Shown here: one piece after another, positions 37,295 to 62,051 of the stretch
Position numbering within the stretch: the stretch's first letter is position 1
How the letters are laid out: each line of letters opens with the position of its first letter
Assembly (NCBI RefSeq): GCF_000018885.1
Contig: NC_010168.1
Location: 2,232,001-2,296,000 of the forward strand
Reading direction: 5' to 3'
Length of the DNA: 64,000 nt
From: Renibacterium salmoninarum ATCC 33209
GTDB lineage: Bacteria > Actinomycetota > Actinomycetes > Actinomycetales > Micrococcaceae
Notes under the pieces: generated by a model
What the model was told of the DNA's origin: nothing
The model's input: the letters and a program-made list of their open reading frames with translations, nothing else
The model's database searches: none
Program-made: the position numbers and the translations under genes

Positions 37295-37912
37295 ATGATC
37301 GGCACCGAAAAAATTCCCCGACGCAGATCCGAGACTCGTAAACGCCTCCTCGAGGCCGCCGGCAAAATATTGCTAGAACACGGCATTCAAAGAGCGAGCA
37401 TCGAAGAGATCTGCGAGCGAGCCGGCTACACCCGCGGCGCCTTTTACTCGAATTTCAGCTCTGTTGATGACCTATTTTTTGCGCTTTATGACTACAACGT
37501 GGGCATCTATCTAGAGCGCCTCGAAGAAGCGCTCACCCAGCCCGCAACCCCAACGGACGTTCGTGAAATCGTGAGTAGCGTCTTATCGCTGCTACCGCTA
37601 GGGAACACCTGGCAATTACTCAATGCCGAATTCGCGGCTCAAGCAATGCGTAATCCAGCAGCAGCCCAAGCCTTAGCCGAACATCGAGGGCGACTACGCG
37701 AACGCTTGGAGCCGATGTGGCTAGCCGCCATCAAACGCACGGGCAGGCGCCCCACGGTGCCGCTCACCACATTGGTCAGAATTGTCATGGCCGTCTATGA
37801 CGGTGCCATGACGCATTCACGCTTTCCTGAATCTCCAGCACTCGAACCCAGTGATTTGATCCCTTTGGCGCTGCAATGTGTATTTGAGGCTTTGACGCAG
37901 GAAGAAATATGA
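37295..37912 (+). CDS. TetR-family transcriptional regulator
   Basis: Repressor of 205 residues. The helix-turn-helix lies at about residues 12-55 (RLLEAAGKILLEHGIQRASIEEICERAGYTRGAFYSNFSSVDDLFFALYD). The C-terminal ligand domain is unremarkable. It is divergent from the hydrolase/monooxygenase/SDR operon, with a double operator-like repeat in between, so it very likely represses that operon and itself. The ligand may be a ketone, alcohol or lipid processed by those enzymes. The regulator is intact although two of its target genes are broken. Confidence 0.92.
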   Translation: MIGTEKIPRRRSETRKRLLEAAGKILLEHGIQRASIEEICERAGYTRGAFYSNFSSVDDLFFALYDYNVGIYLERLEEALTQPATPTDVREIVSSVLSLLPLGNTWQLLNAEFAAQAMRNPAAAQALAEHRGRLRERLEPMWLAAIKRTGRRPTVPLTTLVRIVMAVYDGAMTHSRFPESPALEPSDLIPLALQCVFEALTQEEI

Positions 37913-38501
37913 CGTGTTAGTAAAAGTATAACCAGAAGGTTATCCGGTCGGATATTGCAATTACACTCAGGGTCTAGTAGACATGAAATGTATTTAAGCT
38001 GATTGAAATGACTTTGATACAGTCACAAATCGCAATGGCTGCTGGCAATTTTCCGTCGTTGAACTTATACGATACTTTCATCGGAATTGACCCGAAAAAT
38101 TCTCTCATGTAACGAATATCACATGGCTGATAAATTACTGTTGAGCCACTAAATCAGGCGCTCCCACCTTCGAGCTAACCACACCCATGCGCCAATCAGG
38201 CCCGGTAGCTCAAGGAGTAGCGGCACTCTCGAGCATTTATGCAACAAATTGTCGCTTAATAATATTGAATCGCTTATCGCAATTAACTTCGCAAAAAAAT
38301 ATGCCAGATGTATTTCAATATATTTCAGATTTAATAACTTTGAGCACCTAACAGGTAAACAAGACGTACATCCTTCAATCACCGCTTGACGCATGGAATT
38401 ATGACTCTACAATAAAGATTGCAGTAAGCAGGAGATTATTTTCTTCGCTAAACGCCTTTGCCGGTTAACTTTTTTACATTGGAGCCTTTCGGCATCCAGG
38501 G
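37913..38501 (+). other. AT-rich 589-bp region upstream of the synthase operon
   Basis: No gene I can support; an 81-codon minus-strand frame (38149-38394) shows no family features. The region is visibly richer in A/T than its surroundings. A 16-base palindrome ATAACCAGAAGGTTAT (37928-37943) lies just after tetR and may be a weak terminator or a binding site. The promoter of the synthase operon must lie here, probably in the last 150 bases. Confidence 0.6.
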
Positions 38502-41500
38502 ATGGGAAATTCCATGCGCCCTGATATTGCACATCGCATCTCGATCATCGCGATAAGCCCTTTCGCCACTCCGGACGCACGGCTAGCAGCCGCAGCATCA
38601 AACTCCGGAGCATTGGGTGTACTCGATCTGGGCGCATCTGCGAACCAAGCTCAAGACGCGCTCCGTTCTTTGCGGAAATGGACCTCTGAACCTTTCGGAA
38701 TCCGGGTAGATACCGCTTGTGCCCTGCGCCCAGAGCAAGTCTTCGCTGAGGGCCAACCGCATCCAAGCCATGTTCTCTTAGCCCGCGAAGTTGCCGCAGT
38801 CAAAGACTGGGCACCTGGCGCTCTGCCCGCAGTAACTGTCGTCTTTGCCGAAGTAAGGACTCTCGACGAAGCGCTGGTTGCCCAGCGTGCCGGAGTTCAT
38901 GGTCTCATCGCCCACGGGAGCGACGGCGGTGGCCTGGTTGGCCCGCTCAGCTCGTTCGTGCTGCTTCAACAGCTGACCAGTTCGACCGACATTGAGCTAC
39001 GGGTATGGGCCAGCGGCGGAATCGGAGCTCATACGGCTCGCGCTGCTCTTGCTGGCGGGGCAGCCGGCGTGGTGCTAGACACCCAGCTTGCGTTGCTCGC
39101 CGAAGCTGAGACATCGCCCGAGCTCAGCAACGCGCTGGCCGGTATGGATGGCTCTGAAACCGTCGTCATTGACGGGTATCGGGTGCTCCGCCGGCGTGGC
39201 CCTGGCCGCGATAAGTCGGCAGCGGAAATCTCACTCCCCGCTGGACTTGGCAGCAATGACCTCAACAATCAGTTGGTCCCGATTGGCCAGGACGGCTTTC
39301 TCGCAGCGCGCTTCAAATCACTTTGGCGTACCGTACCAGCAGCGGTAAAAGGGCTACGCAAAGCAATCGAGCTGCCCACCGACACTTCGATCCTGCTGGC
39401 TGATTCTCCGTTAGCGCAGGCAATGGGAACTCGCCTAGGCCTGGCACAAGGACCAATGACTCGGGTAAGTGACCAGCCCGAGTTCGCTACCGCGGTGGCC
39501 CAGGCTGGCGGCCTGCCCTTCATCGCGCTGGCGTTGTCCAATGCGGAGCAAAGCCGCAAGATGCTTGAAGGTACCCGCGATCAGATTGGCAACAAGCCCT
39601 GGGGCGTGGGCATCTTGGGCTTTGCCGACGACGCAACTAAGGACGCTCAGCTAGAAATCGTGCATGAAGTGCGTCCCAGCCACGCAATCATCGCCGGTGG
39701 CCGGCCTGCCCAGGCGGCAGCGCTGGAAGCAGTGGGCATCAAGACTTTTCTGCACGTGCCCTCCCCCGCACTTTTGGATCAGTTCCTCACCGCTGGCGCA
39801 CGCCGCTTCATTTTCGAAGGTTCTGAATGTGGCGGACATATTGGTCCGCGCAATAGCTTCGCGCTCTGGGAGGCGCAGCTGGCGGTATTGGAAGACCGGA
39901 TCGACAAGCTCGACGGCGAACCAGTCACCATTTATTTTGCTGGCGGCATCAGCGACGAGCGATCCGCGGCGATGGTCGCCGCCATGGCCGCCCCGCTCGC
40001 CGCAAAGGGTGCGCTGATCGGCCTACTCGTGGGCACGGCTTACCTTTTCACCGCTGAAGCTGTCAGTTCCGGAGCGATCAGCCGGGTTTTCCAGGATCAA
40101 GTAGTAGCTGGCGAGTCCACGGCAAAGTTGGAGACCGCGCCTGGGCACGCTACCCGCTGCGTCACGAGCCCCTTCACCGAGGAATTTTTGGCCATCAAGG
40201 CCAGGCTCAGCGCCGAAGGAACTCAAGATCGCGACGCTTGGCAAGAGCTAGAGGCACTCAATCTGGGTCGCTTGCGATTGGCCAGCAAAGGCATTGAGCG
40301 AATCGGTTCCGAGTTGCTTGAAGTTGATGCTGATCGGCAGCTTTCCGAAGGCATGTTCATGGCTGGCGAAGTTGTCGCCTTGCGCTCATCGATCATTACT
40401 GTCGCTGAGTTACATGAAACGCTTAGCAGCCAGGCCGCTGCCTTCCTCGAAGAACACTCCCCCAAGCTCGTCGAAGCGTCAGCAGAGGCTGCCACCCCAG
40501 CGCCGCTGGACATCGCCGTCGTCGGAATGGCCGGCATGTTTGCCGGCAGCCCTGACCTAGCCGCATTTTGGGCCACGATAGTGAATGCAAAAGATGTGGT
40601 TACCGAAGTGGATCCGGACCGTTGGGACCCGGCTGTGTACTACGACAATCCGACGTCGAACGGCATTCACAGCCCCTCAAAATGGGGCGGATTCCTCCCC
40701 GAAATTCCCTTCGATCCACTACGTTATGGCATTCCGCCAGCATCTCTGGCAGCAATCGAACCAGCTCAGTTGTTGGCGCTTGAGGTAACTCGGCGCGCGC
40801 TTGAGGACGCCGAGCTTAGCTCTGACATTGACCGCAGCAGAATCTCAGTATTCTTTGGTGCTGAAGCTGGCAGCGATATGTCCAATGCCAGCCTGATCCA
40901 AACAATTCTGCCGAATTACGTTGAAAATATCCCGGCAGAACTGGCAGACCAGCTCCCCCGGCTCACCGAAGACTCGTTCCCCGGCATGCTCTCAAACGTT
41001 ATTGCGGGCCGTATTGCGAGCCGCTTGGACTTGGGCGGCGCAAACTACACGATGGACGCCGCCTGCGCTTCATCACTAGCCGCGCTCGATGTCGCTTGCA
41101 AGGAACTCACGCAAGGCACCAGCAACATTGTGCTCTGCGGCGGTGTTGATCTGCACAATACGATCAACGATTATTTGCTCTTCGCTTCGGTCACCGCGCT
41201 CAGCCCGACCGGTCGTTCGCGAGCCTTCGACGGTAATTCGGACGGCATCGCGCTCGGTGAAGGCGTCGGCTGCCTTGTGCTCAAGCGGCTCGAGGATGCC
41301 GAGCGCGACGGCGATCGGATCTACTCGGTCGTCCGCGGCATCGGAAGCTCAAGCGATGGAAAGTCGCTCGGGCTAACCGCGCCCCGGCCGGAAGGCCAAC
41401 GTTCTGCGCTTGAGAGGGCGTACCGCAACGCTCGCGTTGCGCCATCGCAAGTTGGGTTGGTCGAAGCGCACGGAACGGGCACCGTGGTTGGTGACCGCAC

Positions 41501-44500
41501 CGAATTGTCTATGCTGACCAAAGTCTTCCTGGAAGCTGGCGTCCCGGTTGCTAACGCGGCTATCGGCTCGGTGAAATCCCAGATTGGCCACACCAAATGT
41601 GCCGCTGGCGTTGCCAGTATGATCAAGGTTTCTTTGGCTATCTACAACGGTGTCAAACCGCCAACGTTGCACGTCAGCACCCCCAGTGCCGCTTGGACAA
41701 AGGGGCAAAGCCCGTTCGTTTTCAATAAGGAATCAGCACCGTGGCCAATACCGTTGAACGAACGGTTTGCCGGTGTCAGTGGATTTGGCTTCGGCGGCAC
41801 GAACTTCCACATTGTGCTCAGCGGGCATAAGGTTTCAGCTCCACAGCGACACAGCCTCGACGAATGGCCAGCCGAGTTGTTCTTGTTCCGAGGCGAGGCG
41901 ACGGACGCCATTCGCGCGGTCAAAGAACTGGGCGCGATGGTCTCCCTTGGCGACGACAAAGGTCGTCCCTGGAAGTTGCGTGATCTGGCCGCCAATAATT
42001 CGCTTCGCGCAGCCAATAGCGTTAAACCGGTCTCGATCGCCGTCGTAGCTCGGGATATTGACGAGTTGACCCTGTTACTTGCCAGAGCGGCTCAAGGCGA
42101 ATCAGACCCAGACGCCGGGCTGTATACGCCAGCCGCCCAGAGCGAATCAGGCTCGCTCGCCTTCCTATACCCAGGACAAGGCAGCCAACGCCCTGGCATG
42201 CTCAAAGAACTATTTGTCGCATTCCCCGAGCTCCACGAGGTGCTGGCTTTGGGCAGCGAATGGGCCAGTACAATGCTTCCGCCGGCCGCCTTCGACGCCG
42301 AAAACTCGGCCGAACAAGTCGCACAAATAACCGACACCACGGTTGCGCAACCAGTCTTGGGTTTGGCTGCTTTGGCTTTGGGTCAATTGCTTCACAAGAG
42401 CGGCGTACAGCCAGACGTCGCCGCTGGCCACAGCTACGGCGAGCTTGCTGCGCTGGCAGCCGCCGGCGTTGTGGACGCCCAGACCTTGATCTCACTCAGT
42501 GCGGCAAGAGCGCAATCTGTGGTCAAGGCCATCGGCGAGGAGCCCGGAAAAATGGCTGCCATTTCTGCCTCAGCGGCAGACATCGAGGCTGCGCTGCAAA
42601 CTGCGGGCCTCTCCGGAACTGTCACACTGGCAAACCGAAATTCGCCCACTCAGACCGTGATCTCTGGCGCTAGCGTATCCATTGAAACCGCGGTAGAAAA
42701 ACTTCGCGAAACCGGGCTCAGCGTCAAAACCTTCCCGGTTGCCTGCGCATTCCACAGCCCGGTCATTGCCGAGGCTTCGACCAACTTCGCCGAAGCTCTG
42801 CGCACAGTGCCATTATTGGAAGCCAACTTCCCGGTTTGGAGCAATCGACAAGCTGCTCCCTATCCGACCGACGTCGAAGCGATTCGCGCCGAACTCGCCG
42901 CACAAGTTACTGCGCCGGTCCGGTTCATGGAACAAATCGAATCAATGTACGCCGCGGGCGTTCGAACTTTCGTAGAAGTCGGTCCAGGACAGGTTCTTTC
43001 TAAACTCGTTGCCGCGATCCTAGGCCAACGACCACACACGGTGGTTCCGCTGGCGCCCAGCTCGCACGGCAGCATCCGCGAGCTGCTGGTTGCCCTGGCA
43101 AGACTCGCAACCACAGGTATCTCGGTTAGCAGTGACTGGCTTTACCGCGGTCGCAAAATTCAACACATCAATAGCTCAGTGATTCCGACGACGCCCGCGT
43201 GGACCGTCAACGGCGTCACCATCAAAACTCGCGACGGGAAGATCTTGCCCGGCGCGCTAGCCCCAGCCCGACGTCTCCAGGAGGTCACCGTAGTGCACCA
43301 GACCCAGCAGCCAGCCAGCGAGCGTGACACCCTAGTCGCCGAATTCCTGCGAACCAGCCGAGAAATGGTCGCAGCACAACGAGACGTACTGCTCGGGTAT
43401 CTTGGCAGCACAGGTTCGGGCCCAGGCTTACCGTCCAGCCCGTCTCAGGTTTTCAACCCCGCACCGCTAGCGGCTGCGCCAGTTCTGCCTGCAGCTCGAC
43501 CGGTTGAAACTAGCTACGCCGCTCCCGTGCCAGCTCCGGTCTTGGCCGCTACGGCAACGCTCTTGCAGGCGCCAGCTCAGCAGGCAACCCAGCAACAGGC
43601 ACCCGCTGGCCTGACACCTGCCGCAATTTTAGCCGCCGTCGTCGAAATCATCGGCGAGCGCACGGGCTACCCAGCGGACATGATCGAACCCGATCTGGAC
43701 CTCGAAGCAGACCTCAGCATCGACTCGATCAAACGCACCGAAATCGCCGGCGAACTGGCCAGCAAACTTGCAGGTAGCGGCTCGTCTACCTCGTTGACCG
43801 ATTCGCAGCTTGAAGAACTGTCCAAGGCACGAACCACCGGCGCCATTGCCGAATGGCTTTCGGAAAAAATTGGCACTCCCGCTGCTGCTAGCCAAGCTGC
43901 TGTCTCCAGCGCAGTTGCTGCACCGGTTGTTGAAGCAGCTACTGCGGCGGTGAGCTCGGCGAGCATCTTGGCCGCCGTCGTCGAAATCATCAGTGAGCGC
44001 ACTGGCTACCCAGCGGACATGATCGAACCCGATCTGGACCTCGAAGCTGACCTCAGCATCGACTCGATCAAACGCACCGAAATCGCCGGCGAGCTGGCAG
44101 CGCGCTTCGGGGCTCAAGGCTCCGCACTGAACGAAGCGCAATTGGAAGAACTCTCCAAAGCCCGCACCACTGGAGCAATCGCCGAGCAACTGTTGCTTTC
44201 GCTCAACGGCCCAGCGGCTACGCCGGCAGCTCAAGTGACCCAGCCAGCTCAGCAGGCACCGGTTCCGGCCGTTGCCCCGACTGCCGCCCCGACTGCCAAT
44301 GTCCAGGCCGACGTCCAAGGCCACGCTCCCGAAAGGTTAGTTTTTCGCAAAACACGCTTAGACCTGCCCGTTCCAACGGCTGGCGCACTGGCCGGTAGCA
44401 AGATTCTGGTGATCGGCTCCGGAGAAATTGCTGCGAATTCCGTTGCTGCGGCTAATGTTCTGGGCGCTTCTGCCCAACGTGTGGAGCCGTCCGCGGCTCT

Positions 44501-45803
44501 TCACGTTTTGACCGCGCCTGACGCCGCATTCGATGGCGTGCTGTACCTAGACCCGCTAGATAACACCGGCACCGCAAATGTGCCGGAGATCTTCCCGCTC
44601 ATCAAAGCCGCAGTAGCGCTAGCTCCGCGATACTTGATCGCGGCCAGGCCGCTTGCCTCCGACGGCACCGGTAGCGCTGAGCGAACCATTGGCTTACGCG
44701 GACTGTTCCGCAGTCTGGCCAGAGAATATCCGCAGACTTTGGTGCGGCTTGTCGACTTGGAACCGACCAAACCGGCCGACGTCGTTGCTTCGGCACTGAT
44801 AGCCGAGCTTACTGACACATCTAATGAACCAATCGTGAACCTAGTCAATGGCGAACGAAGCGGTTTAGAACTAGCCACAAGTGACTTAGGACTACTCGGT
44901 TCCACCGGAGCTGGCCCAGCTGGTGAGGGTGCGGCTGAGGCTGAGGCACTTCAGCTTGACCGAGATTCCGTGGTTGTTCTGGTTGGTGGCGCTCGTGGAA
45001 TCACGGCGAAATTTTCCGCAACGTTGGCGGCAACTAGTCGCTGCCGGATCGAGTTATTCGGTCGCACCGCATTAGCTACCGAAGCTGAAGCTGCTGACAC
45101 CGCGGCAGCAACCGACCGTGCCGGCCTGCGTCGAGCCTTGGCTGTGCGGGCTGGCGCTACTGCCGCATCGGTGGAACGCGAAGCTACCGAAATTTTGGCA
45201 CGCCGCGAAGTGAACTCGACCATTGAAACGCTGCGCGCGGCCGGCAGCACGGTGGAATACCAATCAGTTGACGTTCGCGACGCTGATTCGGTACGCACCG
45301 CGCTGACCTCAGTCTTTGATCGCTACGGTCGAATTGACGGCGTGGTCTACGCCGCCGGCGTGATCGAAGACAAATTGGTTGTCGATAAGGATCCGTCTTC
45401 CTTCAGCCGGGTTTACAACACCAAAGTCGACGGCGCGGCAACCATCCTGAGCGTGGTGGACACGCTTCCGGTGAGCCCCGGGTTTGTGGTGTTCTTTGGC
45501 AGTATTGCTGCGGCGCTAGGTAACCGCGGTCAAAGCGATTACGCCGCGGCTAACGATGCGCTTGAAGCTATGGGGGCGGCCTGGGCGCTACGCACTGGAC
45601 AGCGAGCAGTAACCGTGCACTGGGGACCTTGGGCACCGTCGGGCAACAACCCGGGCATGGTCAGCCACGAACTGGGACGCGACTACATCCGCCGCGGTAT
45701 CAAACTGATTGATCCGGACGCCGGTACGCATGCACTACTGAAAGAACTGGCCTGGGGCGAGCGCGATCTCAATGCCGTCGTCTACACCGCCTCGGGGTGG
45801 TGA
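38502..45803 (+). CDS. PUFA-synthase-like multidomain synthase: ER-like x2, KS, AT, ACP x2, KR
   Basis: Giant synthase of 2433 residues. Order: two nitronate-monooxygenase/PfaD-like TIM barrels (about 5-245 and 300-560); the second has the usual GSECGGHIGPRNS loop, the first only GSDGGGLVGPLSS without the His. Then KS (about 667-1095; Cys855 in DAACASSL, HGTGT, GHTKCAAG), malonyl-type AT (about 1215-1520; Ser1311 in GHSYGE, CAFHS), two ACPs (phosphopantetheine Ser1742 and Ser1855, LSIDSIKRTEI) and KR (about 2150-2425; GGARGITA, catalytic Ser/Tyr in FFGSIAAALGNRGQSDYAAAN). KS and ACP are closest in style to PfaA. Start 38502 or 38514. Stop overlaps the next gene. Builds or extends an acyl chain; product unknown. 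Confidence 0.93.
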   Translation: MGNSMRPDIAHRISIIAISPFATPDARLAAAASNSGALGVLDLGASANQAQDALRSLRKWTSEPFGIRVDTACALRPEQVFAEGQPHPSHVLLAREVAAVKDWAPGALPAVTVVFAEVRTLDEALVAQRAGVHGLIAHGSDGGGLVGPLSSFVLLQQLTSSTDIELRVWASGGIGAHTARAALAGGAAGVVLDTQLALLAEAETSPELSNALAGMDGSETVVIDGYRVLRRRGPGRDKSAAEISLPAGLGSNDLNNQLVPIGQDGFLAARFKSLWRTVPAAVKGLRKAIELPTDTSILLADSPLAQAMGTRLGLAQGPMTRVSDQPEFATAVAQAGGLPFIALALSNAEQSRKMLEGTRDQIGNKPWGVGILGFADDATKDAQLEIVHEVRPSHAIIAGGRPAQAAALEAVGIKTFLHVPSPALLDQFLTAGARRFIFEGSECGGHIGPRNSFALWEAQLAVLEDRIDKLDGEPVTIYFAGGISDERSAAMVAAMAAPLAAKGALIGLLVGTAYLFTAEAVSSGAISRVFQDQVVAGESTAKLETAPGHATRCVTSPFTEEFLAIKARLSAEGTQDRDAWQELEALNLGRLRLASKGIERIGSELLEVDADRQLSEGMFMAGEVVALRSSIITVAELHETLSSQAAAFLEEHSPKLVEASAEAATPAPLDIAVVGMAGMFAGSPDLAAFWATIVNAKDVVTEVDPDRWDPAVYYDNPTSNGIHSPSKWGGFLPEIPFDPLRYGIPPASLAAIEPAQLLALEVTRRALEDAELSSDIDRSRISVFFGAEAGSDMSNASLIQTILPNYVENIPAELADQLPRLTEDSFPGMLSNVIAGRIASRLDLGGANYTMDAACASSLAALDVACKELTQGTSNIVLCGGVDLHNTINDYLLFASVTALSPTGRSRAFDGNSDGIALGEGVGCLVLKRLEDAERDGDRIYSVVRGIGSSSDGKSLGLTAPRPEGQRSALERAYRNARVAPSQVGLVEAHGTGTVVGDRTELSMLTKVFLEAGVPVANAAIGSVKSQIGHTKCAAGVASMIKVSLAIYNGVKPPTLHVSTPSAAWTKGQSPFVFNKESAPWPIPLNERFAGVSGFGFGGTNFHIVLSGHKVSAPQRHSLDEWPAELFLFRGEATDAIRAVKELGAMVSLGDDKGRPWKLRDLAANNSLRAANSVKPVSIAVVARDIDELTLLLARAAQGESDPDAGLYTPAAQSESGSLAFLYPGQGSQRPGMLKELFVAFPELHEVLALGSEWASTMLPPAAFDAENSAEQVAQITDTTVAQPVLGLAALALGQLLHKSGVQPDVAAGHSYGELAALAAAGVVDAQTLISLSAARAQSVVKAIGEEPGKMAAISASAADIEAALQTAGLSGTVTLANRNSPTQTVISGASVSIETAVEKLRETGLSVKTFPVACAFHSPVIAEASTNFAEALRTVPLLEANFPVWSNRQAAPYPTDVEAIRAELAAQVTAPVRFMEQIESMYAAGVRTFVEVGPGQVLSKLVAAILGQRPHTVVPLAPSSHGSIRELLVALARLATTGISVSSDWLYRGRKIQHINSSVIPTTPAWTVNGVTIKTRDGKILPGALAPARRLQEVTVVHQTQQPASERDTLVAEFLRTSREMVAAQRDVLLGYLGSTGSGPGLPSSPSQVFNPAPLAAAPVLPAARPVETSYAAPVPAPVLAATATLLQAPAQQATQQQAPAGLTPAAILAAVVEIIGERTGYPADMIEPDLDLEADLSIDSIKRTEIAGELASKLAGSGSSTSLTDSQLEELSKARTTGAIAEWLSEKIGTPAAASQAAVSSAVAAPVVEAATAAVSSASILAAVVEIISERTGYPADMIEPDLDLEADLSIDSIKRTEIAGELAARFGAQGSALNEAQLEELSKARTTGAIAEQLLLSLNGPAATPAAQVTQPAQQAPVPAVAPTAAPTANVQADVQGHAPERLVFRKTRLDLPVPTAGALAGSKILVIGSGEIAANSVAAANVLGASAQRVEPSAALHVLTAPDAAFDGVLYLDPLDNTGTANVPEIFPLIKAAVALAPRYLIAARPLASDGTGSAERTIGLRGLFRSLAREYPQTLVRLVDLEPTKPADVVASALIAELTDTSNEPIVNLVNGERSGLELATSDLGLLGSTGAGPAGEGAAEAEALQLDRDSVVVLVGGARGITAKFSATLAATSRCRIELFGRTALATEAEAADTAAATDRAGLRRALAVRAGATAASVEREATEILARREVNSTIETLRAAGSTVEYQSVDVRDADSVRTALTSVFDRYGRIDGVVYAAGVIEDKLVVDKDPSSFSRVYNTKVDGAATILSVVDTLPVSPGFVVFFGSIAAALGNRGQSDYAAANDALEAMGAAWALRTGQRAVTVHWGPWAPSGNNPGMVSHELGRDYIRRGIKLIDPDAGTHALLKELAWGERDLNAVVYTASGW
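43632..44098 (+). repeat. Tandem near-identical ACP-coding repeats
   Basis: Two 128-bp segments (43632-43759 and 43971-44098) encoding the cores of the two ACP domains are almost identical at DNA level, including silent positions. The period is 339 bp (113 codons); the linker DNA between them has diverged. The pattern fits recent duplication or gene conversion of the carrier cores. Confidence 0.85.
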
Positions 45804-48800
45804 GTTTGGCAGCCGAACGCGCCGGAGACGAACTGGTGAACAAGCACACTCAGGAGCCAATCGCCGTCGTCGGAATGGCTGCGATGTTTCCTGGCGCGCG
45901 GAATCTGCGCGAGTACCGGGACAATCTTTTCGCCGGGTTCGACGCCATTACTGATGCGCCAGGTAGTCGTTGGGACCCAGCTCTTTACCACCCTGAGGCA
46001 GTGCACGAATCGGCAAGTTCCGATCGGTTTTACTGCCGTCGAGGTGGTTTTATCGACGATTTCCCCGAAGTTTCTGTGGCCCAGTTCGGCATCATGCCGA
46101 ACTCCGTCGAAGGAACGGAACCGGATCAGCTCATCGCTTTGGAACTGGCCGCAGCAGCGCTCGCTGATGCGGGACTTTCCGGAAAGCTACTCGACGGCGT
46201 GGACCGGTCCCGGGTCGGCGTTATTTTGGGTCGCGGCGGCTATATCTCCCCCGGAATTGCTCGGCTAAGTCAGCGGGTGGGCACCGCAGGCCAGGTGGTT
46301 GCGACGTTGAGTCAGCTCCTGCCAGAGCTCAGCGAGGAAGTTCTTGCGCAGGTCCGGAGTGCTTTCATTGATCAGTTAGGCCCGGACCGGCCAGATAACG
46401 CGATCGGTTTGGTGCCAAATTTGGCCGCCTCCCGGGTAGCTAATCGTCTTGATCTTCGCGGACCGGCTTACACCGTTGATGCTGCCTGTGCTTCCTCGCT
46501 GCTTGCTGTAGGTCATGCGGTGCAGGAGTTGGAAAGCCGCCGCTGTGATATGATGCTCGCTGGCGGCATGCACCATGCGCATGACGCAACCCTGTGGAGT
46601 GTTTTCACCCAGCTCAAAGCTCTTTCGGCAGCACAGCTGAGCCGACCGTTCGACGCCGATTCAGACGGCATTCTGATTGGCGAAGGCACCGGAGTGCTTG
46701 CGCTAAAACGTTTGGAAGACGCCATTCGCGATGGCGACCGGGTCTACGCCACTATCCGTGGCACCGGCATTGCCAGCGACGGACGGACGTCGAGTTTGAT
46801 GAATCCGGATCCGGGCGGTCAAAGCCGCGCAGTTCGTGCCGCCTGGAACCGAGCGGGCTCAGATCCAAAAGCAGCGGGCTCAGTTGGCTTGATTGAAGCG
46901 CACGGCACCGGCACGCCCGCTGGTGATGCCTCCGAACTGACCACCTTGCGCGAAGTCTTCGGACCCACCGATCCGGACGGTCCCCGAGCGGGCCTCGGCT
47001 CGGTGAAATCGATGATCGGCCACGCGATGCCAGCAGCCGGTGCGGCAGGATTAATCAAGGCCGTTCTTGCCGTCTATCACGGCGTATTACCGCCGACCTT
47101 GGGCGTCAGTCAGCCACATCCTGCCCTCTCCGATACTCGATTTGCACCGGTTTCCCAGGCAGCCGAATGGACGCCAGATGCTAGGCAACCGTTGCGCCGG
47201 GCTGGGGTGAACGCTTTTGGTTTCGGCGGTATCAACGCCCATATCGTTGTTGAACAAGTATCCGGCCAAGCGGCGGTTCCGGTCTCCATCAACGGCACGC
47301 TTTTCGATGTGGACCAGCAAAGCGTCGCTTCCCAGAGTGTCAGCAAAGCTGAGCGGCTCCCGATTTATCCGCCGGAGCCCGGCGCAGCACCTGTTTTGCT
47401 TTTGGCCGCAGCGAGCCAGGAAGAACTCCAGCTCATCTTGGCCGAGACCGATGATCAGCTATTAGCGCGAGTTGGCAGCGCACCCGGAACCGGATCAGTG
47501 CGGCTAGGCATTGTCTCCCCTGGAGCCAAACAGTTCTCAATTGCCCGGAAAGCAGTAGCCCGTGGCAAAGCCTGGCACGGGCGCAGCGACGTTTGGTTCC
47601 GGCCGGAACCGTTGTTGGATGCCGACGGCGGCGGCCTCGCCTTTGTCTGCCCGGGCTTGGAAGTGGAGTTCAGCCCACGGATTGACGACGTCTTAAGTTA
47701 TTTCGATTTACCAAGAATTCGAGGCATCGCTGCCGGCAGCGAATTCACCGAAAACATCAATCTCCAGGGCAGCGCCGTGCTTCAGGTATCACGGACTCTT
47801 TCGGCGGCTTTGGCGAAACTTGGTGTGCAAGCTGATGCTTTTGCCGGGCACAGTCTCGGCGAATGGTCCGCCATGATGTTGGGCGATATGTTCGACAGCG
47901 AAGAAGTCGATGCTTTTCTCGACGAATCCGGCATGGCCGAGGCTCAGTTCTCGGGTTTGGCTTTTGCCGTCATTGGTGCACCCGCTTCGATGGTGCTCAC
48001 CGAGTTGGCCGGTCGCGAGGACGTCGTCCTTTCGCATGACAATGCACCACAGCAATCAATGATTTGCGGGCCTGGCGACGTCGTAGACGAACTGGTGGAA
48101 CTTTTCCGCGGCCGCGGCTACGTCTCAAAGACACTGCCGTTCACTTCGGGCTTTCACACGCCGATGTTTGCCAAGTACTTGGACCAGCTTGAAATATTGA
48201 CCGGGAGCCTAGCCATTACCTCAGCTCGGACTCCGGTCTGGTCCGCAACTACCACGCAACCTTTTCCGGCCGATCATGACGAAATTCAAGAGATTTTTGT
48301 CCGGCACCTTTTAGAGCACGTCCGTTTTAGAGAACTCATCGAGAACATGTCCGGCAGTGGAATTAGGTTCTTTGTTCAGCTGGGTCCAGGACAATTGGGT
48401 AGCCTGATCTCGGATACTTTGCATTCAACCGAGCATGTGGTTGTTAGCGCCAATAACGCTAACCGGAGCGGACTTGATCAGCTGCGTACGGTGTTGACCG
48501 CGCTGTGGGCCGCTGGCCGGAACGTTGACTTGGACTTCTTGGGCCAAAAGGTTCTCCAGCTTGATGCGACTGCCAACACGGCGAAATCTCTTACGCCAAA
48601 TTTGGCTGCGGTAACGGACGCTGAAGTAGCTCACGCCGTAGCCGGCCCGCGCAGCAAATTAGATCTTTCCAGCCCGGTTATTGTGCTTACACAAGAAGCA
48701 GCACAACGGCTGGGGAAGTCGCTACACTCGGCTTCGGTCAACACTGCAGCAGCAGGAGGTGCCACGGAACTTTCGGCTGCCGCTCTGGCCCCTGGCAGCA

Positions 48801-50560
48801 ATCTGGCCCCCACAGTGGCCGCCGAGCTCAAGGCTTTCCTCGGCGAGACCGATGCATTCGTTGCCTCGGTGCTTAGCGGCAGCTTGGTGGGAAACTCGGA
48901 TCACGTTGTACCCACAGCTCCGACGCCGCCCGTGCCAAACGAGCCAACTGTTCCGCCGTCGATGCCAGAGATCGCAACACAATTTCTCGACGTCTCGTTG
49001 GCGTCCATGCCGCATTTGGCTGACCACAGTTTCTTCACTCAGCGTGCGGACTGGCCAGATTTCACCGACCGGTTCCCGGTAGTTCCCGGCACGACGATGA
49101 TCAGATTGATGATGGATTCCGCGGAACAATCCACCGGGCGCCATGCGGTGGCCGTGCATTCGGTCCGCTTCCATCGTTGGGCTGATCTCTTCGAGCCAAC
49201 AGTCATTGAGGTCAGCGCAAAGTGGATCGATGAGAATCGGCTCGCAGTCTCCTTTGGTAATTTCTCGCACTGCACGGTAGAGCTAGCCTCGGAGTACGGC
49301 ACCGCTGAATCGCCGCTTTGGTCTATTGAGCCGACCGAAGTGAAGGACATGATCCTCGAAGAGGACATCTCCGAGTTCTACCGCCAACGCTGGATGTTCC
49401 ACGGACCGCAATATCAGGGGCTCACCGCAGTGCACGGCCGCAGCGAAACTCATATTCGCGGTACGGTTTTGGCCAAACCAGCCAAAGGCTCCCTCATGGA
49501 CAATGTTGGTCAGCTTGCCGGGTACTGGCTGATGTCTGAATTTACCGAGCGCGCTACGGTTTATCCCGCGGGAATTCAAACTTTGCGTTTTTACGGCCCG
49601 GACCCTGCGCCAGGTGAGAGCGTCGAGTGCCATATGCGCATCACCGAAGTCAACGATTCCATGTTCCAAACTGACGGTCAGTTAGTGCACAACGGCAAGC
49701 TTTGGTGCGAAGTCACCGGCTGGCAAGACCGGCGATTTGATAGCGCTCCGAACATCAGAGAAGTTGAAGCGGCAGTTGAGCATCACGCTTTTGCACAAGC
49801 GGAACCGGGCGGTTGGGTCATGGTGCCGGATTATTGGCCAGATCTTGCTTCGCGCGACCTCACGATGCGCAGATACTTGGCTAAAGCCGAGCGCTTAGAA
49901 CATCAAGCCAGTGCACCACTCGGGCGCCGTCAGCGGTTGCTCGGCCGACTCGCGGCAAAGGACGCGGTGCGTCTGCATGTTTGGGAGTCTGATCCAGACC
50001 GGCCGTTGTTCCCAGCAGAGGTGGGCATTGGCCACCTCTGCTCGGGTCAGCCAACGGTTAGCGGTATGCATGGCACTGAGCTACCCGAGTTGGACATTTC
50101 CATTGCGCACAGTCGCGACATCGGCGTTGCTATTGCCTCCCCGCGCAAAGCTGGCTCGGTCGGCGTCGGAATTGATATTGAGTCCATCGAAGAACTACCG
50201 GACTCGGTTGAAAATATCGCCTTCACGGCGCGCGAGCAGCAGCTCCTTGACCAACACCGGGCCAACACCGAAGCCGGTTCTTTTGAGTACCGGAGTTGGT
50301 TCACCCGATTCTGGTCGGCAAAAGAGGCAGTCGGCAAAGCGCTGGGTACCGGTCTGGCTGGCAAACCTCGGCAGTTCGAAGTCCGCACGGTGCGCTCCGG
50401 AAGTGCCGAGTCAGACTATATTTTCGACGTCAACGACGGCCAAAACCGAATCTTCGAGGTATCGATAAAAACGATCCAGAATCCAGAAAAGCTCCCAGAT
50501 CACCGTTACGTGGTCGCTTGGACAACCGGTCCAGCCGACCTTGAAAGGAACCCATCATGA
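45800..50560 (+). CDS. Second synthase: KS, AT, DH and fused phosphopantetheinyl transferase
   Basis: About 1586 residues. GTG 45800 overlaps the previous stop as GTGA (a GTG one codon earlier is possible). KS (about 20-460) is catalytically complete: DAACASSL with Cys near 231, EAHGTGTPAGD, SMIGHAMPAAG. The AT-like domain (about 615-900) keeps Ser686 in GHSLGEW and GFHTPMF though its N-terminal motif is unusual (FVCPGLEVEF). A DH double hot-dog (about 1055-1340) has His1077 in LADHSFF. The C-terminal PPTase (about 1390-1570) has GIDIES (about 1458) and WSAKEAVGKALG, the Mg/CoA residues. It can thus activate the ACPs of both synthases and the free ACP. Closest in logic to PfaC plus PfaB plus PfaE. 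Confidence 0.92.
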   Translation: MSLAAERAGDELVNKHTQEPIAVVGMAAMFPGARNLREYRDNLFAGFDAITDAPGSRWDPALYHPEAVHESASSDRFYCRRGGFIDDFPEVSVAQFGIMPNSVEGTEPDQLIALELAAAALADAGLSGKLLDGVDRSRVGVILGRGGYISPGIARLSQRVGTAGQVVATLSQLLPELSEEVLAQVRSAFIDQLGPDRPDNAIGLVPNLAASRVANRLDLRGPAYTVDAACASSLLAVGHAVQELESRRCDMMLAGGMHHAHDATLWSVFTQLKALSAAQLSRPFDADSDGILIGEGTGVLALKRLEDAIRDGDRVYATIRGTGIASDGRTSSLMNPDPGGQSRAVRAAWNRAGSDPKAAGSVGLIEAHGTGTPAGDASELTTLREVFGPTDPDGPRAGLGSVKSMIGHAMPAAGAAGLIKAVLAVYHGVLPPTLGVSQPHPALSDTRFAPVSQAAEWTPDARQPLRRAGVNAFGFGGINAHIVVEQVSGQAAVPVSINGTLFDVDQQSVASQSVSKAERLPIYPPEPGAAPVLLLAAASQEELQLILAETDDQLLARVGSAPGTGSVRLGIVSPGAKQFSIARKAVARGKAWHGRSDVWFRPEPLLDADGGGLAFVCPGLEVEFSPRIDDVLSYFDLPRIRGIAAGSEFTENINLQGSAVLQVSRTLSAALAKLGVQADAFAGHSLGEWSAMMLGDMFDSEEVDAFLDESGMAEAQFSGLAFAVIGAPASMVLTELAGREDVVLSHDNAPQQSMICGPGDVVDELVELFRGRGYVSKTLPFTSGFHTPMFAKYLDQLEILTGSLAITSARTPVWSATTTQPFPADHDEIQEIFVRHLLEHVRFRELIENMSGSGIRFFVQLGPGQLGSLISDTLHSTEHVVVSANNANRSGLDQLRTVLTALWAAGRNVDLDFLGQKVLQLDATANTAKSLTPNLAAVTDAEVAHAVAGPRSKLDLSSPVIVLTQEAAQRLGKSLHSASVNTAAAGGATELSAAALAPGSNLAPTVAAELKAFLGETDAFVASVLSGSLVGNSDHVVPTAPTPPVPNEPTVPPSMPEIATQFLDVSLASMPHLADHSFFTQRADWPDFTDRFPVVPGTTMIRLMMDSAEQSTGRHAVAVHSVRFHRWADLFEPTVIEVSAKWIDENRLAVSFGNFSHCTVELASEYGTAESPLWSIEPTEVKDMILEEDISEFYRQRWMFHGPQYQGLTAVHGRSETHIRGTVLAKPAKGSLMDNVGQLAGYWLMSEFTERATVYPAGIQTLRFYGPDPAPGESVECHMRITEVNDSMFQTDGQLVHNGKLWCEVTGWQDRRFDSAPNIREVEAAVEHHAFAQAEPGGWVMVPDYWPDLASRDLTMRRYLAKAERLEHQASAPLGRRQRLLGRLAAKDAVRLHVWESDPDRPLFPAEVGIGHLCSGQPTVSGMHGTELPELDISIAHSRDIGVAIASPRKAGSVGVGIDIESIEELPDSVENIAFTAREQQLLDQHRANTEAGSFEYRSWFTRFWSAKEAVGKALGTGLAGKPRQFEVRTVRSGSAESDYIFDVNDGQNRIFEVSIKTIQNPEKLPDHRYVVAWTTGPADLERNPS

Positions 50561-50883
50561 CAATCGACCTGCCAGCAAACGCCCCGACGAGCGACGAAGT
50601 CCTTGCCGAAATCACCCGCCTCATTGGCGAGCTTCTGGACGAATATAGCCTGGACGACGTCGAGGTAACCCGGGAGACCTTGTTCCAAGACGATCTGGAA
50701 CTAGAAAGTATTGACCTCGTCTCGCTCGGCGGCCAGTTGCGCGAGAGCTATGGCGAGCGAATCAACTTCGCCGAGTTCATCGGCTCGATGGATCTTGACG
50801 AAATCATCAATATGCGGGTCGGCCAATTAGTCGATTACGTTACCGATCGATTGGCAACTACTTCATCGGAGGGCGCAGCATGA
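50557..50883 (+). CDS. Acyl carrier protein
   Basis: Free-standing acyl carrier of 108 residues. The phosphopantetheine site is Ser51 in DDLELESIDLVSLG; helices around it are typical. ATG overlaps the synthase stop (ATGA) after an AAGGA site, and its own stop overlaps the next ATG (ATGA), so translation runs through the operon. It differs from the two in-cis ACPs (LSIDSIKR) and so may carry a starter, or the finished chain to the hydrolase or glycosyltransferase. Activation by the PPTase fused in the neighbouring synthase is likely. Confidence 0.93.
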   Translation: MTIDLPANAPTSDEVLAEITRLIGELLDEYSLDDVEVTRETLFQDDLELESIDLVSLGGQLRESYGERINFAEFIGSMDLDEIINMRVGQLVDYVTDRLATTSSEGAA

Positions 50884-51725
50884 GTTTCAGCACGATTAAT
50901 GGTCACCGGCTGCACTACGAAGTCTTGCCGGCCGCTGGCGTCCGCCCGGGTGAGCCCCGGGAAACGCTCGTTTTGATTCACGGAATGTTGTTCGACAACC
51001 TCTCCAGTTTCTACTTCACCGTGGCACCGGCTTTTGCCGAGGCTGGCTTTGATGTGATAATGTTCGATCACCGCGGGCATGGTAAGAGCAAGAAAATTGA
51101 GTCCGGCTACCAGCTGCATAATGTGGTTGATGATTTAGCCGCGCTACTCGATGAGATCCACGATGGAACTCCGGTCCATGTGATTGGCAATTCCTATGGC
51201 GGCACGCTAGCATTTTCCTTCGCGCTGCGCTACCCAGAACGCGTGGCCACGATGACCTCGATTGACGCCGAGCCACCGACCAAATCCTGGCTAAAGATGA
51301 TTGATGATGGCATGGCCGAAGCCATGCGAGTCATCGACAAGCCCGAGGTGCAAAGCGATTTCCAAGCACAGTGGGGTCAGCAGGGAATGCGGTTGGGCCG
51401 AGCCGCAAAAAAGATCCTCGACGATACTCGATTCATGTACGAGATGACTGACACTCCGGCGGTTGCAGATGATGCGATTGCCAATCTGGATATGCCAGTT
51501 CTTGCCTTTTATGGCAGCGAATCCGAAGCTTTCAAACTAGAGCCGTTGATCCGTGAACTGGTACCGATCAATAAGACCGTGGTCGCTCAGGGCATTGGGC
51601 ATATGGTGCTGATGGATGTCCCTGAACTCGTCGAGACTGAGGTCATCTCCTGGGTGCGCGAGCACCCCGCTGCAGAAATTGTGGCCCGGCGCGCACATGC
51701 CCAAGTTCCGGAAAATTCGATCTGA
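50880..51725 (+). CDS. Alpha/beta hydrolase, first of two paralogues
   Basis: Serine hydrolase of 281 residues. The nucleophile is Ser105 in GNSYGGTLAF; VLIHGMLFDN is the oxyanion stretch; DHRGHGKSKK is conserved; the His is H241 in GIGHMVLMD, with an acidic residue expected around FYGSESEAF. It shares long identical blocks with the hydrolase at 52961-53791, so the pair arose by duplication. In this operon it could act as thioesterase, cyclase or transferase that releases the chain from the ACP. Start overlaps the ACP stop. Confidence 0.88.
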   Translation: MSFSTINGHRLHYEVLPAAGVRPGEPRETLVLIHGMLFDNLSSFYFTVAPAFAEAGFDVIMFDHRGHGKSKKIESGYQLHNVVDDLAALLDEIHDGTPVHVIGNSYGGTLAFSFALRYPERVATMTSIDAEPPTKSWLKMIDDGMAEAMRVIDKPEVQSDFQAQWGQQGMRLGRAAKKILDDTRFMYEMTDTPAVADDAIANLDMPVLAFYGSESEAFKLEPLIRELVPINKTVVAQGIGHMVLMDVPELVETEVISWVREHPAAEIVARRAHAQVPENSI

Positions 51726-51735
51726 TCGGTTGCTC

Positions 51736-52932
51736 ATGCGCATTCTCATCGTCGTCCCGCCTCTAGTGGGACACAGCAGTCCGCCGCTTGCCATTGCTGA
51801 AGAACTCGAACGTCGGGGCCACCAGGTCGCCTGGGCGGGAGTGTCTGATTTCCATTCACGGTATGTACCAAATTCAGCAACCTTCTACGACTGCCGCACT
51901 GGTTGGGGTGAATCCGGCATGCCGGAGCGTCCCGCAAAGTTGATGGGTCCCGGCGCCCTGAAGTTTTTCTGGGAAGAACACGTGGTTCCGTTCGCTGACG
52001 GCTCAGCTGCCGACGTCGAAGCCGCCGTGCTTGATTTTGGGCCAGACTTGATGTTTGTCGATCAACAAGCTCTAGCCGGCTCGATGGTCGCCGCACGACT
52101 TGGCGTGCCGTGGGTTACCTCGGCAACGACTATGATCGAATTGATCAATCCAGTCTCTCGGCTGCCCAAAGTGCATGCCTGGCGAAACGAACTCTTCGCG
52201 GGTCTTCGACGTCGAATTGGCGATCCGTTAGCCAGACACAATCCGCTCTTCTCCCCCACCCTCACTGTGGCTTTTGGTATTGCTGGCCTCTTCGGCACTC
52301 GGGCTGACGTTGGCTCGCCGGTGGAATTTGTTGGCCCAGTGTTCCGGCCAGTTGTTGCCTCCGCGGAAAAAGCCGCTGAGAACGAACGAATTCTAAATTG
52401 GGCCAAGGCGTCAGTGAAGCCAACAGTGCTGATTGCGCTTGGTACGACCAATATCGGCGCTGGGGACAGATTTCTCCGTGCGGCCACCGAAGGGGTGCTG
52501 AAGGCCGGTTATCGGGCAATTGTTGCGGATCCGTCCCAGGCGCTGGCCGGTGTCAGCGATCCTGACCTACTAGCTGTTCCGTATGTGCCGCAGCAACAGT
52601 TACTTGCCCATGTGGATGCTTTTATCAATCATGGTGGCTATAATAGCGTCTGTGAATCGCTCTGGTACAACGTGCCCATTGTGCTTGCTGGCATCCGAGA
52701 TGACCAGCCATTGATTGCGGAGAAAGCAGATGAATACGGCGTCGGAATCGCGGTTCGCTTTTCCCGGGCCACCCCGGCAAAAATATCCGAAGCAACTCGC
52801 ACCGTCATTGAGGACAATTCTTATCGGGAGAACACTAAGCCATATGGCGATGCGCTCCGTGGCTCCGGTGGCGTGAGCGCCGCTGTCGATGCGATTGAGC
52901 GAGTCACCGCGAACAACCCGGTATTAGCTTGA
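51736..52932 (+). CDS. UDP-glycosyltransferase-like (MGT/GT1) enzyme
   Basis: GT-B glycosyltransferase of about 398 residues. The N-terminal acceptor half starts MRILIVVPPLVGHSSPPLAIAEEL; the C-terminal donor site has VLIALGTTN, YVPQQQLLAHVDAFINHGGYNSVCESLWYNVPIVL and DDQPLIAEK, the family signature. ATG 51736 is chosen because a longer frame upstream would overlap the hydrolase for over 100 bases. The spacing of 10 bases and weak ribosome site suggest reliance on coupling. It probably adds a sugar to the product of the synthases, giving a glycolipid or glycosylated polyketide. Confidence 0.92.
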   Translation: MRILIVVPPLVGHSSPPLAIAEELERRGHQVAWAGVSDFHSRYVPNSATFYDCRTGWGESGMPERPAKLMGPGALKFFWEEHVVPFADGSAADVEAAVLDFGPDLMFVDQQALAGSMVAARLGVPWVTSATTMIELINPVSRLPKVHAWRNELFAGLRRRIGDPLARHNPLFSPTLTVAFGIAGLFGTRADVGSPVEFVGPVFRPVVASAEKAAENERILNWAKASVKPTVLIALGTTNIGAGDRFLRAATEGVLKAGYRAIVADPSQALAGVSDPDLLAVPYVPQQQLLAHVDAFINHGGYNSVCESLWYNVPIVLAGIRDDQPLIAEKADEYGVGIAVRFSRATPAKISEATRTVIEDNSYRENTKPYGDALRGSGGVSAAVDAIERVTANNPVLA

Positions 52933-52960
52933 GAATACTTATTTCGAGGAGGAATTTCAG

Positions 52961-53791
52961 ATGCCGATCACTGTGATCAATGGACTCAAAATGAACTATG
53001 AGATTCTGCGAGCCACTGATCGCGGGCCAGAAGTTCCTCGGGAAACGTTGGTAGTCATCCACGGGATTGTCATTGACAATCTTGCGAGCTACTACCTCAC
53101 CATTGCGCCAGCGATCGCCGCCTCGGGCATCGATGTAATCATGTTCGATCACCGCGGGCATGGAAAAAGCGAGAAGATCGTCAGCGGATATCAGCTCGAA
53201 AACATTGTTGATGACTTGGCAAAGCTTTTGGATCAAATCCATGACGGCACCCCGGTTCACTTAGCCGGAAACTCCTATGGCGGCACGGTGGCTTATGCCT
53301 TCGCGCTGAGTTTCCCGGAGCGAATCGCTTCGCTGAGTTCGTTGGAAGCGGAACCACCAACCCAGTTCTGGTCGGACAGCATCGCGCACACTTTCCGGCA
53401 AAACGACCAGGAGATGAATGAGGTCAGAACCATGGACCGCGTTTTCACTGACTATGGTCAGGGCGGGACAAAAATGCTGAAAAATGGCCGCAGAATGGCC
53501 GCAGAGACCAAGTTCTTCGAGGAATTGCCCTATCCACAATTAGTTGCGGATGATGCCATCAAGGATCTTCAGGTTCCGTTACTGGCCATCTATGGCAGCG
53601 AAAGTAGTTTAGTAGCGCAGGAACCCAAAGTACGCGAGCTGGTCAACGACGTGAAGACGGTAATTTTCCCCGGGGTAGGTCATTCCGTGCTAACCGATGC
53701 GCCCAGGCTGCTTGAAAGAGAATTGATTGATTGGGTTCTCAGCCACCCAGTCGGTTCGGCACAGGGGCAATTATTACAAGCGCAATCGTGA
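52961..53791 (+). CDS. Alpha/beta hydrolase, second paralogue
   Basis: Paralogue of the hydrolase at 50880-51725 with the same length and key residues: Ser105 in GNSYGGTVAY, DHRGHGKSEK, and His in GVGHSVLTD; the segment IHDGTPVH is shared. A strong GAGGAGG site precedes ATG 52961, unlike its coupled partner. It is the last gene of the synthase operon and meets the broken YbaK gene tail-to-tail with 22 bases between. Two similar hydrolases around a glycosyltransferase suggest sequential acyl-release or sugar-dependent steps. No lid domain marks substrate. Confidence 0.88.
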   Translation: MPITVINGLKMNYEILRATDRGPEVPRETLVVIHGIVIDNLASYYLTIAPAIAASGIDVIMFDHRGHGKSEKIVSGYQLENIVDDLAKLLDQIHDGTPVHLAGNSYGGTVAYAFALSFPERIASLSSLEAEPPTQFWSDSIAHTFRQNDQEMNEVRTMDRVFTDYGQGGTKMLKNGRRMAAETKFFEELPYPQLVADDAIKDLQVPLLAIYGSESSLVAQEPKVRELVNDVKTVIFPGVGHSVLTDAPRLLERELIDWVLSHPVGSAQGQLLQAQS

Positions 53792-54547: not shown

Positions 54548-55195
54548 ATGACCAGCAACACTGATTTTTCCCATGCTCTCCGCGAATCAACCCACGTCAT
54601 GCATCAAAATGCCCACGATTCGCCATTTATTGCTGAACTGATGACCGGAAAACGAACGATTGCGGACTACACCGCGTTGGCTACCCAGCAGTATTTCTTT
54701 TACCTGGCCCTCGAAGAGACCGCAGCCAAGCTGCAAAGCAATGAAATCGCCGGCGGATTCCACTGCACCGAGCTGAGCAGAGTGCCGGAGATCGAAAAAG
54801 ATCTAGCATTTTTGATTGGACCGCATTGGCGTGACGTGATCTCCCCTTTGCCTGTTACTCGCAGGTACACCGAGCAGATCGCTCAAACCGAAGCGTGGCC
54901 AGCAGGCTTTGTCGCTCATCACTACACCCGCTACTTAGGCGATCTCTCCGGCGACCAAATCATGCAGCGACTTTTGCAACGCCAATTCGGCTTAGACGTC
55001 GATGGTGTGCACTTTTACGCTTTCCCCGCAATCCCCAAAACCAAACCGTTCAAAGACCAATACCGGGCCAAGCTGAACACTCTGAGCTTCAACGCAGCAG
55101 AGCAAAAACAATTCATCGACGAGGTGACCACAGCATTCAGCCTCAACATCGCGGTATTCACTGATTTAGCAAAAACTACGGCAACCGCAGCTTGA
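54548..55195 (+). CDS. hmuO: Heme oxygenase
   Basis: Cleaves heme to biliverdin, CO and iron, so that iron from host heme can be used. 215 residues. The proximal region is ALRESTHVMHQNAHDSPF with candidate axial His, and the distal helix is RYLGDLSGDQIM. The family standard there is GDLSGGQ; the second Gly is replaced by Asp, which could alter the active site. The key distal Asp (GDLS) is kept. An iron box lies 38 bases upstream. It begins the operon with the permease and ATPase. Confidence 0.95.
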   Translation: MTSNTDFSHALRESTHVMHQNAHDSPFIAELMTGKRTIADYTALATQQYFFYLALEETAAKLQSNEIAGGFHCTELSRVPEIEKDLAFLIGPHWRDVISPLPVTRRYTEQIAQTEAWPAGFVAHHYTRYLGDLSGDQIMQRLLQRQFGLDVDGVHFYAFPAIPKTKPFKDQYRAKLNTLSFNAAEQKQFIDEVTTAFSLNIAVFTDLAKTTATAA

Positions 55196-55205
55196 TCCAG
55201 TTATC

Positions 55206-57065: not shown

Positions 57066-57075
57066 AGTTGTTGCC

Positions 57076-61979: not shown

Positions 61980-62017
61980 AGAAAGCTCCAAAGGATACGA
62001 AAGATCAAGCGGCGAAA

Positions 62018-62051
62018 GCGAAGGCGACACCCTCTTGAGTGTCGCCTTCGC
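62018..62051 (-). terminator. Hairpin terminator after the small secreted gene
   Basis: Perfect 13-base arms (62018-62030 and 62039-62051; GCGAAGGCGACAC) with an 8-base loop, 49 bases past the stop at 62100 and before htaA. Read-through would link this gene to htaA-hmuT. Confidence 0.75.

What the first reader, a model, noticed from the sequence alone, without database searches (positions are those of the whole stretch)
38502..53791. PUFA-synthase-like glycolipid/polyketide operon with a rearranged Pfa domain set
Six tightly coupled genes encode ER-like x2, KS, AT, ACP x2, KR on one chain and KS, AT, DH, PPTase on the next, plus a free ACP, a glycosyltransferase and two hydrolases. Together these are the activities of PfaA-PfaE, but ER is fused at the N-terminus of the first synthase, DH and PPTase are in the second, and only one DH domain is present. 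The glycosyltransferase implies a sugar-bearing product. I do not know a characterised system with this exact order.
Basis: partly seen in the sequence, partly recalled or inferred. Interest (0 to 1): 0.88.

Follow-up and report, generated by a model that had tools for sequence, protein, structure and literature searches.

The report
Orphan Type M glycolipid-synthase operon
The operon is real and intact, but it belongs to an already described actinobacterial kind of lipid-making gene cluster (Type M) for which I found no reported product; its genes point to a sugar-bearing long-chain lipid and probably not to an omega-3-like polyene.

Summary
Six overlapping or closely spaced genes (38502-53791) encode ER1-ER2-KS-AT-ACP-ACP-KR, KS-AT-DH-PPTase, a free ACP, an alpha/beta-hydrolase, a GT1-type glycosyltransferase and a second hydrolase. 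The kind is in print: Shulse & Allen 2011 list Renibacterium salmoninarum under 'Type M' secondary lipid synthases, and a 2026 paper again calls its cluster uncharacterised. Ten paper searches showed no product.

Found here: (1) ACP, hydrolase and glycosyltransferase follow the synthases in 72 of 80 relatives; the other 8 end at contig edges. A DH-PPTase probe hit 42 of 296 genomes of the class; all 10 loci examined further hold the cassette, one without a PPTase match. (2) ER2 is FabK-like, not PfaD-family; ER1 lacks the catalytic His in 74 of 75 relatives. (3) AT2 lacks the malonyl Arg, like PfaB. (4) The DH is PKS-type and the genome has no FabA-type match, so cis-PUFA chemistry is unsupported. 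(5) Three congeners lack KS2. (6) FAS II genes including hadAB are present, against the 2011 idea that Type M is the only complete fatty-acid pathway.

Best reading: an iterative synthase makes a mostly reduced long chain that is off-loaded and glycosylated. The product is unproven.

The parts
38502..45803 (+). PKS1: ER1-ER2-KS1-AT1-ACP1-ACP2-KR, 2433 aa
38547..39206 (+). ER1: NMO/FabK-like stretch, Leu at the catalytic-His position (non-His in 74 of 75 relatives)
39387..40451 (+). ER2: FabK-like FMN enoyl reductase, GGH motif in 75 of 75 relatives
40509..41831 (+). KS1, Cys-His-His intact
42162..43124 (+). AT1, malonyl-type (Ser, Arg, His)
43629..43871 (+). ACP1
43974..44186 (+). ACP2
44970..45635 (+). 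KR
45797..50560 (+). PKS2: KS2-AT2-DH-PPTase, 1587 aa
45854..47266 (+). KS2, Cys-His-His intact; absent in three congeneric genomes
47630..48436 (+). AT2, PfaB-like: Ser and His present, malonyl-binding Arg absent
   Evidence: PfaB comparison
48989..49756 (+). DH, PKS-type double hot dog
50162..50416 (+). PPTase (ACPS)
50557..50883 (+). free ACP, Ser51
50880..51725 (+). alpha/beta-hydrolase HYD1
51736..52932 (+). GT1-type glycosyltransferase (listed ORF from 51616; likely start 51736)
52961..53791 (+). alpha/beta-hydrolase HYD2, paralogue of HYD1 (49%)
37295..37912 (+). TetR-type regulator upstream, same position in the Renibacterium sp. MAG (role inferred)
38386..38413 (+). promoter-like site (10 of 12); number of sites near chance (8 found, 6.3 expected)

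Best explanation
This is a Type M secondary-lipid synthase operon that makes a glycolipid. AT1 loads malonate on the tandem ACPs of PKS1. KS1 and KS2 extend the chain, KR reduces, the PKS-type DH dehydrates to a trans-2-enoyl chain, and ER2 (FabK-like, FMN) saturates it. ER1 is a structural, mostly His-less partner of ER2. PPTase activates the ACPs. AT2, PfaB-like without the malonyl Arg, moves the finished long acyl chain, perhaps to the free ACP. The alpha/beta-hydrolase releases it or joins it to an acceptor, and the GT1 enzyme adds a sugar to a hydroxyl, for example a beta-OH left by the last KR step. Shown from sequence: genes, domains, motifs, conservation. Inferred: order of steps, degree of reduction, off-loading route, sugar, chain length and the role of ER1.
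For: Fixed cassette: ACP, hydrolase and GT follow the synthases in 72 of 80 fetched relatives; the 8 others end at a contig edge inside or just after the synthase genes. ACP Ser 72 of 72; hydrolase Ser/Cys (65/7) and His 72 of 72; GT His13 72 of 72 and Asp-Gln in 71, one not covered. In the 75 of 80 PKS1 and 66 of 80 PKS2 sequences long enough to align: ER2 His 75 of 75, KS1 triad 75 of 75, KS2 triad 66 of 66, DH His and Asp 65 of 66 with one gap. AT1 Arg in 76 of 76 rows, window included; the AT2 column is Phe, Leu, Tyr, Ser or Val in 67 of 67 rows, with Ser and His kept. PfaB also lacks this Arg and prefers long acyl chains (PMC12895367, passages). The DH-PPTase model (pLDDT 87.5) is closest to MAS-like and curacin PKS DHs; in PUFA synthases the PKS-like DH gives trans-2-enoyl chains that ER saturates (PMC9667614, passages). 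Within 6 kb after the GT, of 72 loci: methyltransferase 42, ABC exporter-like 12, MFS 9 on the same strand; 9 have none.
Against: No product is known. Reduction in iterative synthases is programmed, so an intact ER does not prove full saturation. No sugar-nucleotide genes lie in the operon, and the GT's best matches are macrolide-type and UDP-glucosyl transferases, which fits non-lipid acceptors as well. AT2 keeps GHS, not PfaB's GYS. KS2 is absent in three congeners, so its role is unclear. Two relatives (L006, L007) and one divergent locus (L109) show no PPTase match.
Confidence: 0.55

Rival explanations
1. Glycosylated cis-polyunsaturated fatty acid.
For: PfaA-type KS/AT, tandem ACPs, PfaB-like AT; PfaA is the best NCBIfam model for both synthases.
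Against: No FabA-type DH match in the operon or, by PF07977, in the whole genome. FabA-like DH pairs make the cis bonds in PUFA synthases (PMC9667614, passages). No CLF follows KS2.
Confidence: 0.07
2. Conjugated polyene glycoside: ER is skipped in most rounds, as in enediyne-type iterative synthases.
For: A single DH fused to a PPTase recalls enediyne PKSs (recalled, no enediyne synthase was compared here); macrolide-type GT.
Against: The ER2 catalytic His is kept in 75 of 75 relatives, and ER1-ER2 are present in all 10 divergent loci examined.
Confidence: 0.17
3. A glycosylated non-lipid polyketide exported as an antibiotic-like metabolite.
For: Methyltransferase next to 42 of 72 cassettes and exporter-like genes next to some (ABC 12, MFS 9 of 72); macrolide-type GT.
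Against: A PfaB-like AT2, a single set of reductive domains and, in the window, tandem ACPs fit long-chain lipids better (inference).
Confidence: 0.16
4. Type M is the organism's only complete fatty-acid synthase (proposal of Shulse & Allen 2011).
For: No FabA/FabZ (PF07977) match in the genome. FabD-, HadA- and HadB-like proteins score under the curated NCBIfam cut-offs. FAS II KR and ER genes were not looked for.
Against: A fabD-fabH-acpP-fabF operon, with FabH, ACP and FabF over a curated cut-off, and HadA/HadB-like genes beside murB. PF07977 is absent in 18 of 19 genomes searched, this one included, while MaoC-type hydratases are in 19 of 19. 144 of 149 sampled family genomes, among them two of the same genus, show no match to the free ACP of the cassette.
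Confidence: 0.03

Closest known systems
Type M secondary lipid synthase (Shulse & Allen 2011, PMC3098273)
   Same: R. salmoninarum ATCC 33209 is listed as a member with Frankia, Actinosynnema mirum and S. avermitilis; the 2026 paper describes fused pfaDA and pfaBC with a PPTase as resembling it.
   Different: In the parts read, neither text mentions the ACP-hydrolase-GT tail, the tandem ER or KS2-less forms; figures could not be seen.
Omega-3 PUFA synthase PfaA-E (Types A/B)
   Same: PfaA-like KS-AT-ACPn-KR, PfaB-like AT, PPTase.
   Different: No CLF, one PKS-type DH in place of a FabA-like pair, FabK-type in place of PfaD-type ER.
Heterocyst glycolipid synthase (hgl, Type F)
   Same: Pfa-related synthase feeding a glycosylated long chain.
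   Different: Type F lacks DH/I domains and has KS-CLF-AT; the thioester reductase of that pathway (recalled) is not seen here.
Rhamnolipid RhlA/RhlB
   Same: Logic only: alpha/beta-hydrolase-fold enzyme next to a GT, using ACP-bound hydroxy acids.
   Different: No RhlA or RhlB family among the rows shown (lists capped); one weak GT match to a PDB 'Rhamnosyltransferase' (9ke2, 3e-6). RhlA was reported absent outside Proteobacteria except Dietzia maris.
Thraustochytrid ERb/ERc heterodimer (PMC13311796)
   Same: Two TIM-barrel ERs that act together.
   Different: There both keep the His and lie on separate chains (passages); here they are in tandem on one chain and ER1 lacks it.

Membership tests
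Type M secondary lipid synthase | Organism and cluster named as Type M | tested here: met
   R. salmoninarum listed. The window's genome is a single contig of 3,155,250 bases; that this is ATCC 33209 rests on recall of its size and on a Renibacterium sp. MAG as nearest named record
Type M secondary lipid synthase | Fused ER-PfaA and PfaBC-PPTase chains | tested here: met
   Pfam order; text
Type M secondary lipid synthase | KS phylogeny groups with Type M | not tested
   No reference KS tree built
PUFA synthase (Pfa) | PfaA model TIGR02813 over cut-off | tested here: not met
   943 bits (PKS1) and 479 (PKS2) against 1010.1
PUFA synthase (Pfa) | FabA-like DH pair | tested here: not met
PUFA synthase (Pfa) | KS-CLF didomain | tested here: not met
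   KS2 is followed by AT2; one ketoacyl-synt stretch in PKS2
PUFA synthase (Pfa) | PfaD-family ER (TIGR02814) | tested here: not met
PUFA synthase (Pfa) | Tandem ACPs | tested here: met
   2 in the window; but by a strict motif 43 of 75 relatives show one, 30 two, 1 three and 1 none
PfaB-type acyltransferase | Ser/His present, malonyl Arg absent | tested here: met
   one of 67 rows has an Arg within two columns
PfaB-type acyltransferase | GYSxG motif | tested here: not met
   GHSxGE in the window and 66 of 66 relatives; PfaB motif
RhlA/RhlB rhamnolipid synthase | Sequence homology to RhlA or RhlB | tested here: inconclusive
   No such family among the rows shown (capped lists); no direct comparison made
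Heterocyst glycolipid synthase | Product a glycosylated very-long-chain diol or keto-ol | not testable with these tools
   needs lipid chemistry

The most novel reading that the evidence does not exclude
The cassette makes one shared class of exported actinobacterial glycolipid in roughly one in seven species of the class: a polyketide-fed analogue of the RhlA/RhlB route, with a dedicated ACP, a hydrolase-fold acyltransferase and a GT1 enzyme. It could be the genetic basis for the disputed glycolipid reported from R. salmoninarum 27BN.
Probability: 0.15. Interest if true: 0.65.

Novelty: already known. Interest (0 to 1): 0.42.

Why it matters
An operon type named in 2011 still had no product in my searches, yet a DH-PPTase probe for it hit 42 of 296 sampled genomes of the class, this one included. 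The constant ACP-hydrolase-GT tail turns 'secondary lipid, unknown' into a testable glycolipid hypothesis, and the natural KS2-less forms give a built-in comparison for what the second KS does. The FAS II genes found here speak against the earlier idea that this fish pathogen depends on Type M for its fatty acids.

Tried and rejected
Rejected: PUFA product (no FabA-type DH match); Type M as sole FAS (FAS II and hadAB-like genes found). A provisional reading that divergent loci lack the ER domains was wrong: the fetched regions stopped short. With upstream stretches added, ER1-ER2 are in all 10.

Led nowhere: papers giving a Type M product (open-access library only, mostly listings seen); plasmid search (2 Streptomyces plasmids, no named cluster); the methyltransferase has no PDB match at 1e-5. 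Gene calls in the high-GC flanks contained antisense artefacts, so neighbours were counted by tblastn instead. The motif-I Gln column was off by one and is not used; in the six pairs the Gln is Gly in AT2. HYD1/HYD2 branching within the genus is unresolved (support 0.26). ER1 was not folded or searched alone; the fold search tested model residues 212-645.

Full report
Identity. The window is 2232001-2296000 of a single-contig genome of 3,155,250 bases. No tool names it. That size is, from recall, that of Renibacterium salmoninarum ATCC 33209, and the closest named record is a Renibacterium sp. MAG (76% over PKS1).

Observation. Junctions overlap by 7, 4 and 4 nt; 10 nt precede the GT and 28 nt follow it. 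The GT start is about 51736, not 51616. The catalytic motifs checked in PKS1 and PKS2 are intact in the window, apart from ER1's His. The PKS2 protein cluster holds 8 member sequences on 17 contigs.

What is in print. Shulse & Allen 2011 (read: parts 1-2 of 7, section 9, passages) place R. salmoninarum in Type M, product uncharacterised, and suggest Type M is its only complete fatty-acid pathway. A 2026 JACS Au paper (passages) calls the R. salmoninarum cluster an uncharacterised secondary lipid synthase and likens fused pfaDA and pfaBC-PPTase genes to it. Ten searches of an open-access library showed no product. Type L, the S. coelicolor cluster once linked to PUFAs, is a different type.

Distribution. 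240 relatives of PKS1 were confirmed in genome contigs and 80 kept. In 72 of 80 the ACP, hydrolase and GT are found downstream. The other 8 (L022, L043, L048, L049, L051, L061, L064, L065) end at contig edges within about 1 kb of their last synthase domain match. Of 84 loci (80 plus four congeners; L101 appears to be the same record as L001) 69 show ER1-ER2-KS1-AT1-KR-KS2-AT2-DH-PPT, 4 lack KS2, 1 is cut by the fetched region, 2 show no PPTase match and 8 are truncated. In the family sample the free ACP is in 5 of 149 genomes including this one, all of one genus; two listed same-genus genomes lack it. At class level a DH-PPTase probe hits 42 of 296, this genome included. Ten of the 41 others were examined, and all ten hold the two synthases with ER1-ER2, ACP, hydrolase and GT, one without a PPTase match. 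The other 31 were not examined.

Rows dropped. Active sites were counted on 75 of 80 PKS1 (five shorter than 2000 aa dropped) and 66 of 80 PKS2 (L001, KS2-less, dropped; the rest not found as one clustered ORF).

Acyltransferases and DH. AT1 has the malonyl Arg in 76 of 76 rows. In AT2 that column is not Arg in any of 67 rows, although one row has an Arg within two columns. PfaB lacks the same Arg and acts on long chains (passages). The DH is PKS-type by Pfam and fold.

Fatty-acid synthesis. L089 carries fabD, fabH, acpP and fabF in a row. NCBIfam puts FabH, ACP and FabF over a curated cut-off; FabD is the best match but below it (176 of 260.9). L091 carries HadA- and HadB-like genes (149.8 of 180 and 119.9 of 203, below cut-off) beside murB (over cut-off). 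PF07977 (FabA/Z) is absent in 18 of 19 genomes searched, this one included. The 2011 inference is therefore not supported. FAS II KR and ER genes were not looked for, so completeness of FAS II is likely but not shown.

KS2-less forms. In G002, G004 and G006 the PKS2 match starts in the KS-AT linker (start seen in L001). The closest KS to KS2 in those genomes is KS1 of the cassette (43-44%), the next about 36%. G005 keeps KS2 (80%). The G002 copy falls in several frames. KS2 thus looks dispensable, possibly a chain-length or efficiency factor (inference).

Hydrolases. The window has two (49% identical); each of 72 relatives shows one place, and the genus hydrolases form one clade.

Product. Hydrolase plus GT next to an ACP recalls RhlA/RhlB. 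A rhamnolipid claim for R. salmoninarum 27BN exists (Christova 2004, seen only as cited) but is judged putative or unproven by two papers (passages). No RhlA/RhlB homology was shown here. This is kept only as the novel case.

Verdict. The system is already described as a type, with product open.

Noticed in passing
window 54548-62030: Heme-uptake locus beside the operon: heme oxygenase, FecCD permease, ABC ATPase, binding protein and a 1280-aa HtaA-type protein with three HtaA stretches.
   Followed up: partly
window 55206-55928 and 55885-56301: The FecCD permease is split over two overlapping reading frames (profile 1-160 and 184-311), so it looks broken here.
   Followed up: partly
L092 about 4884-5516 (-); G000:C1:2758703-2759311: A second FabF-like gene is interrupted by a TGA.
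   Followed up: partly
window 36426-36905 (-): Short alpha/beta-hydrolase matching only the C-terminal part of the Pfam model; a 64% match lies at the same place in the Renibacterium sp. MAG.
   Followed up: no
L100 2907-14393 (reverse complement numbering): The G002 copy of the cassette lacks KS2 and falls into several frames in PKS1 and the hydrolase: decay or assembly errors.
   Followed up: no
window 50880-51725 and 52961-53791: Two hydrolases here, one place each in 72 of 72 relatives with a match; all genus hydrolases form one clade.
   Followed up: partly
L006 and L007: Crossiella and Umezawaea cassettes show no PPTase match at the end of PKS2.
   Followed up: no
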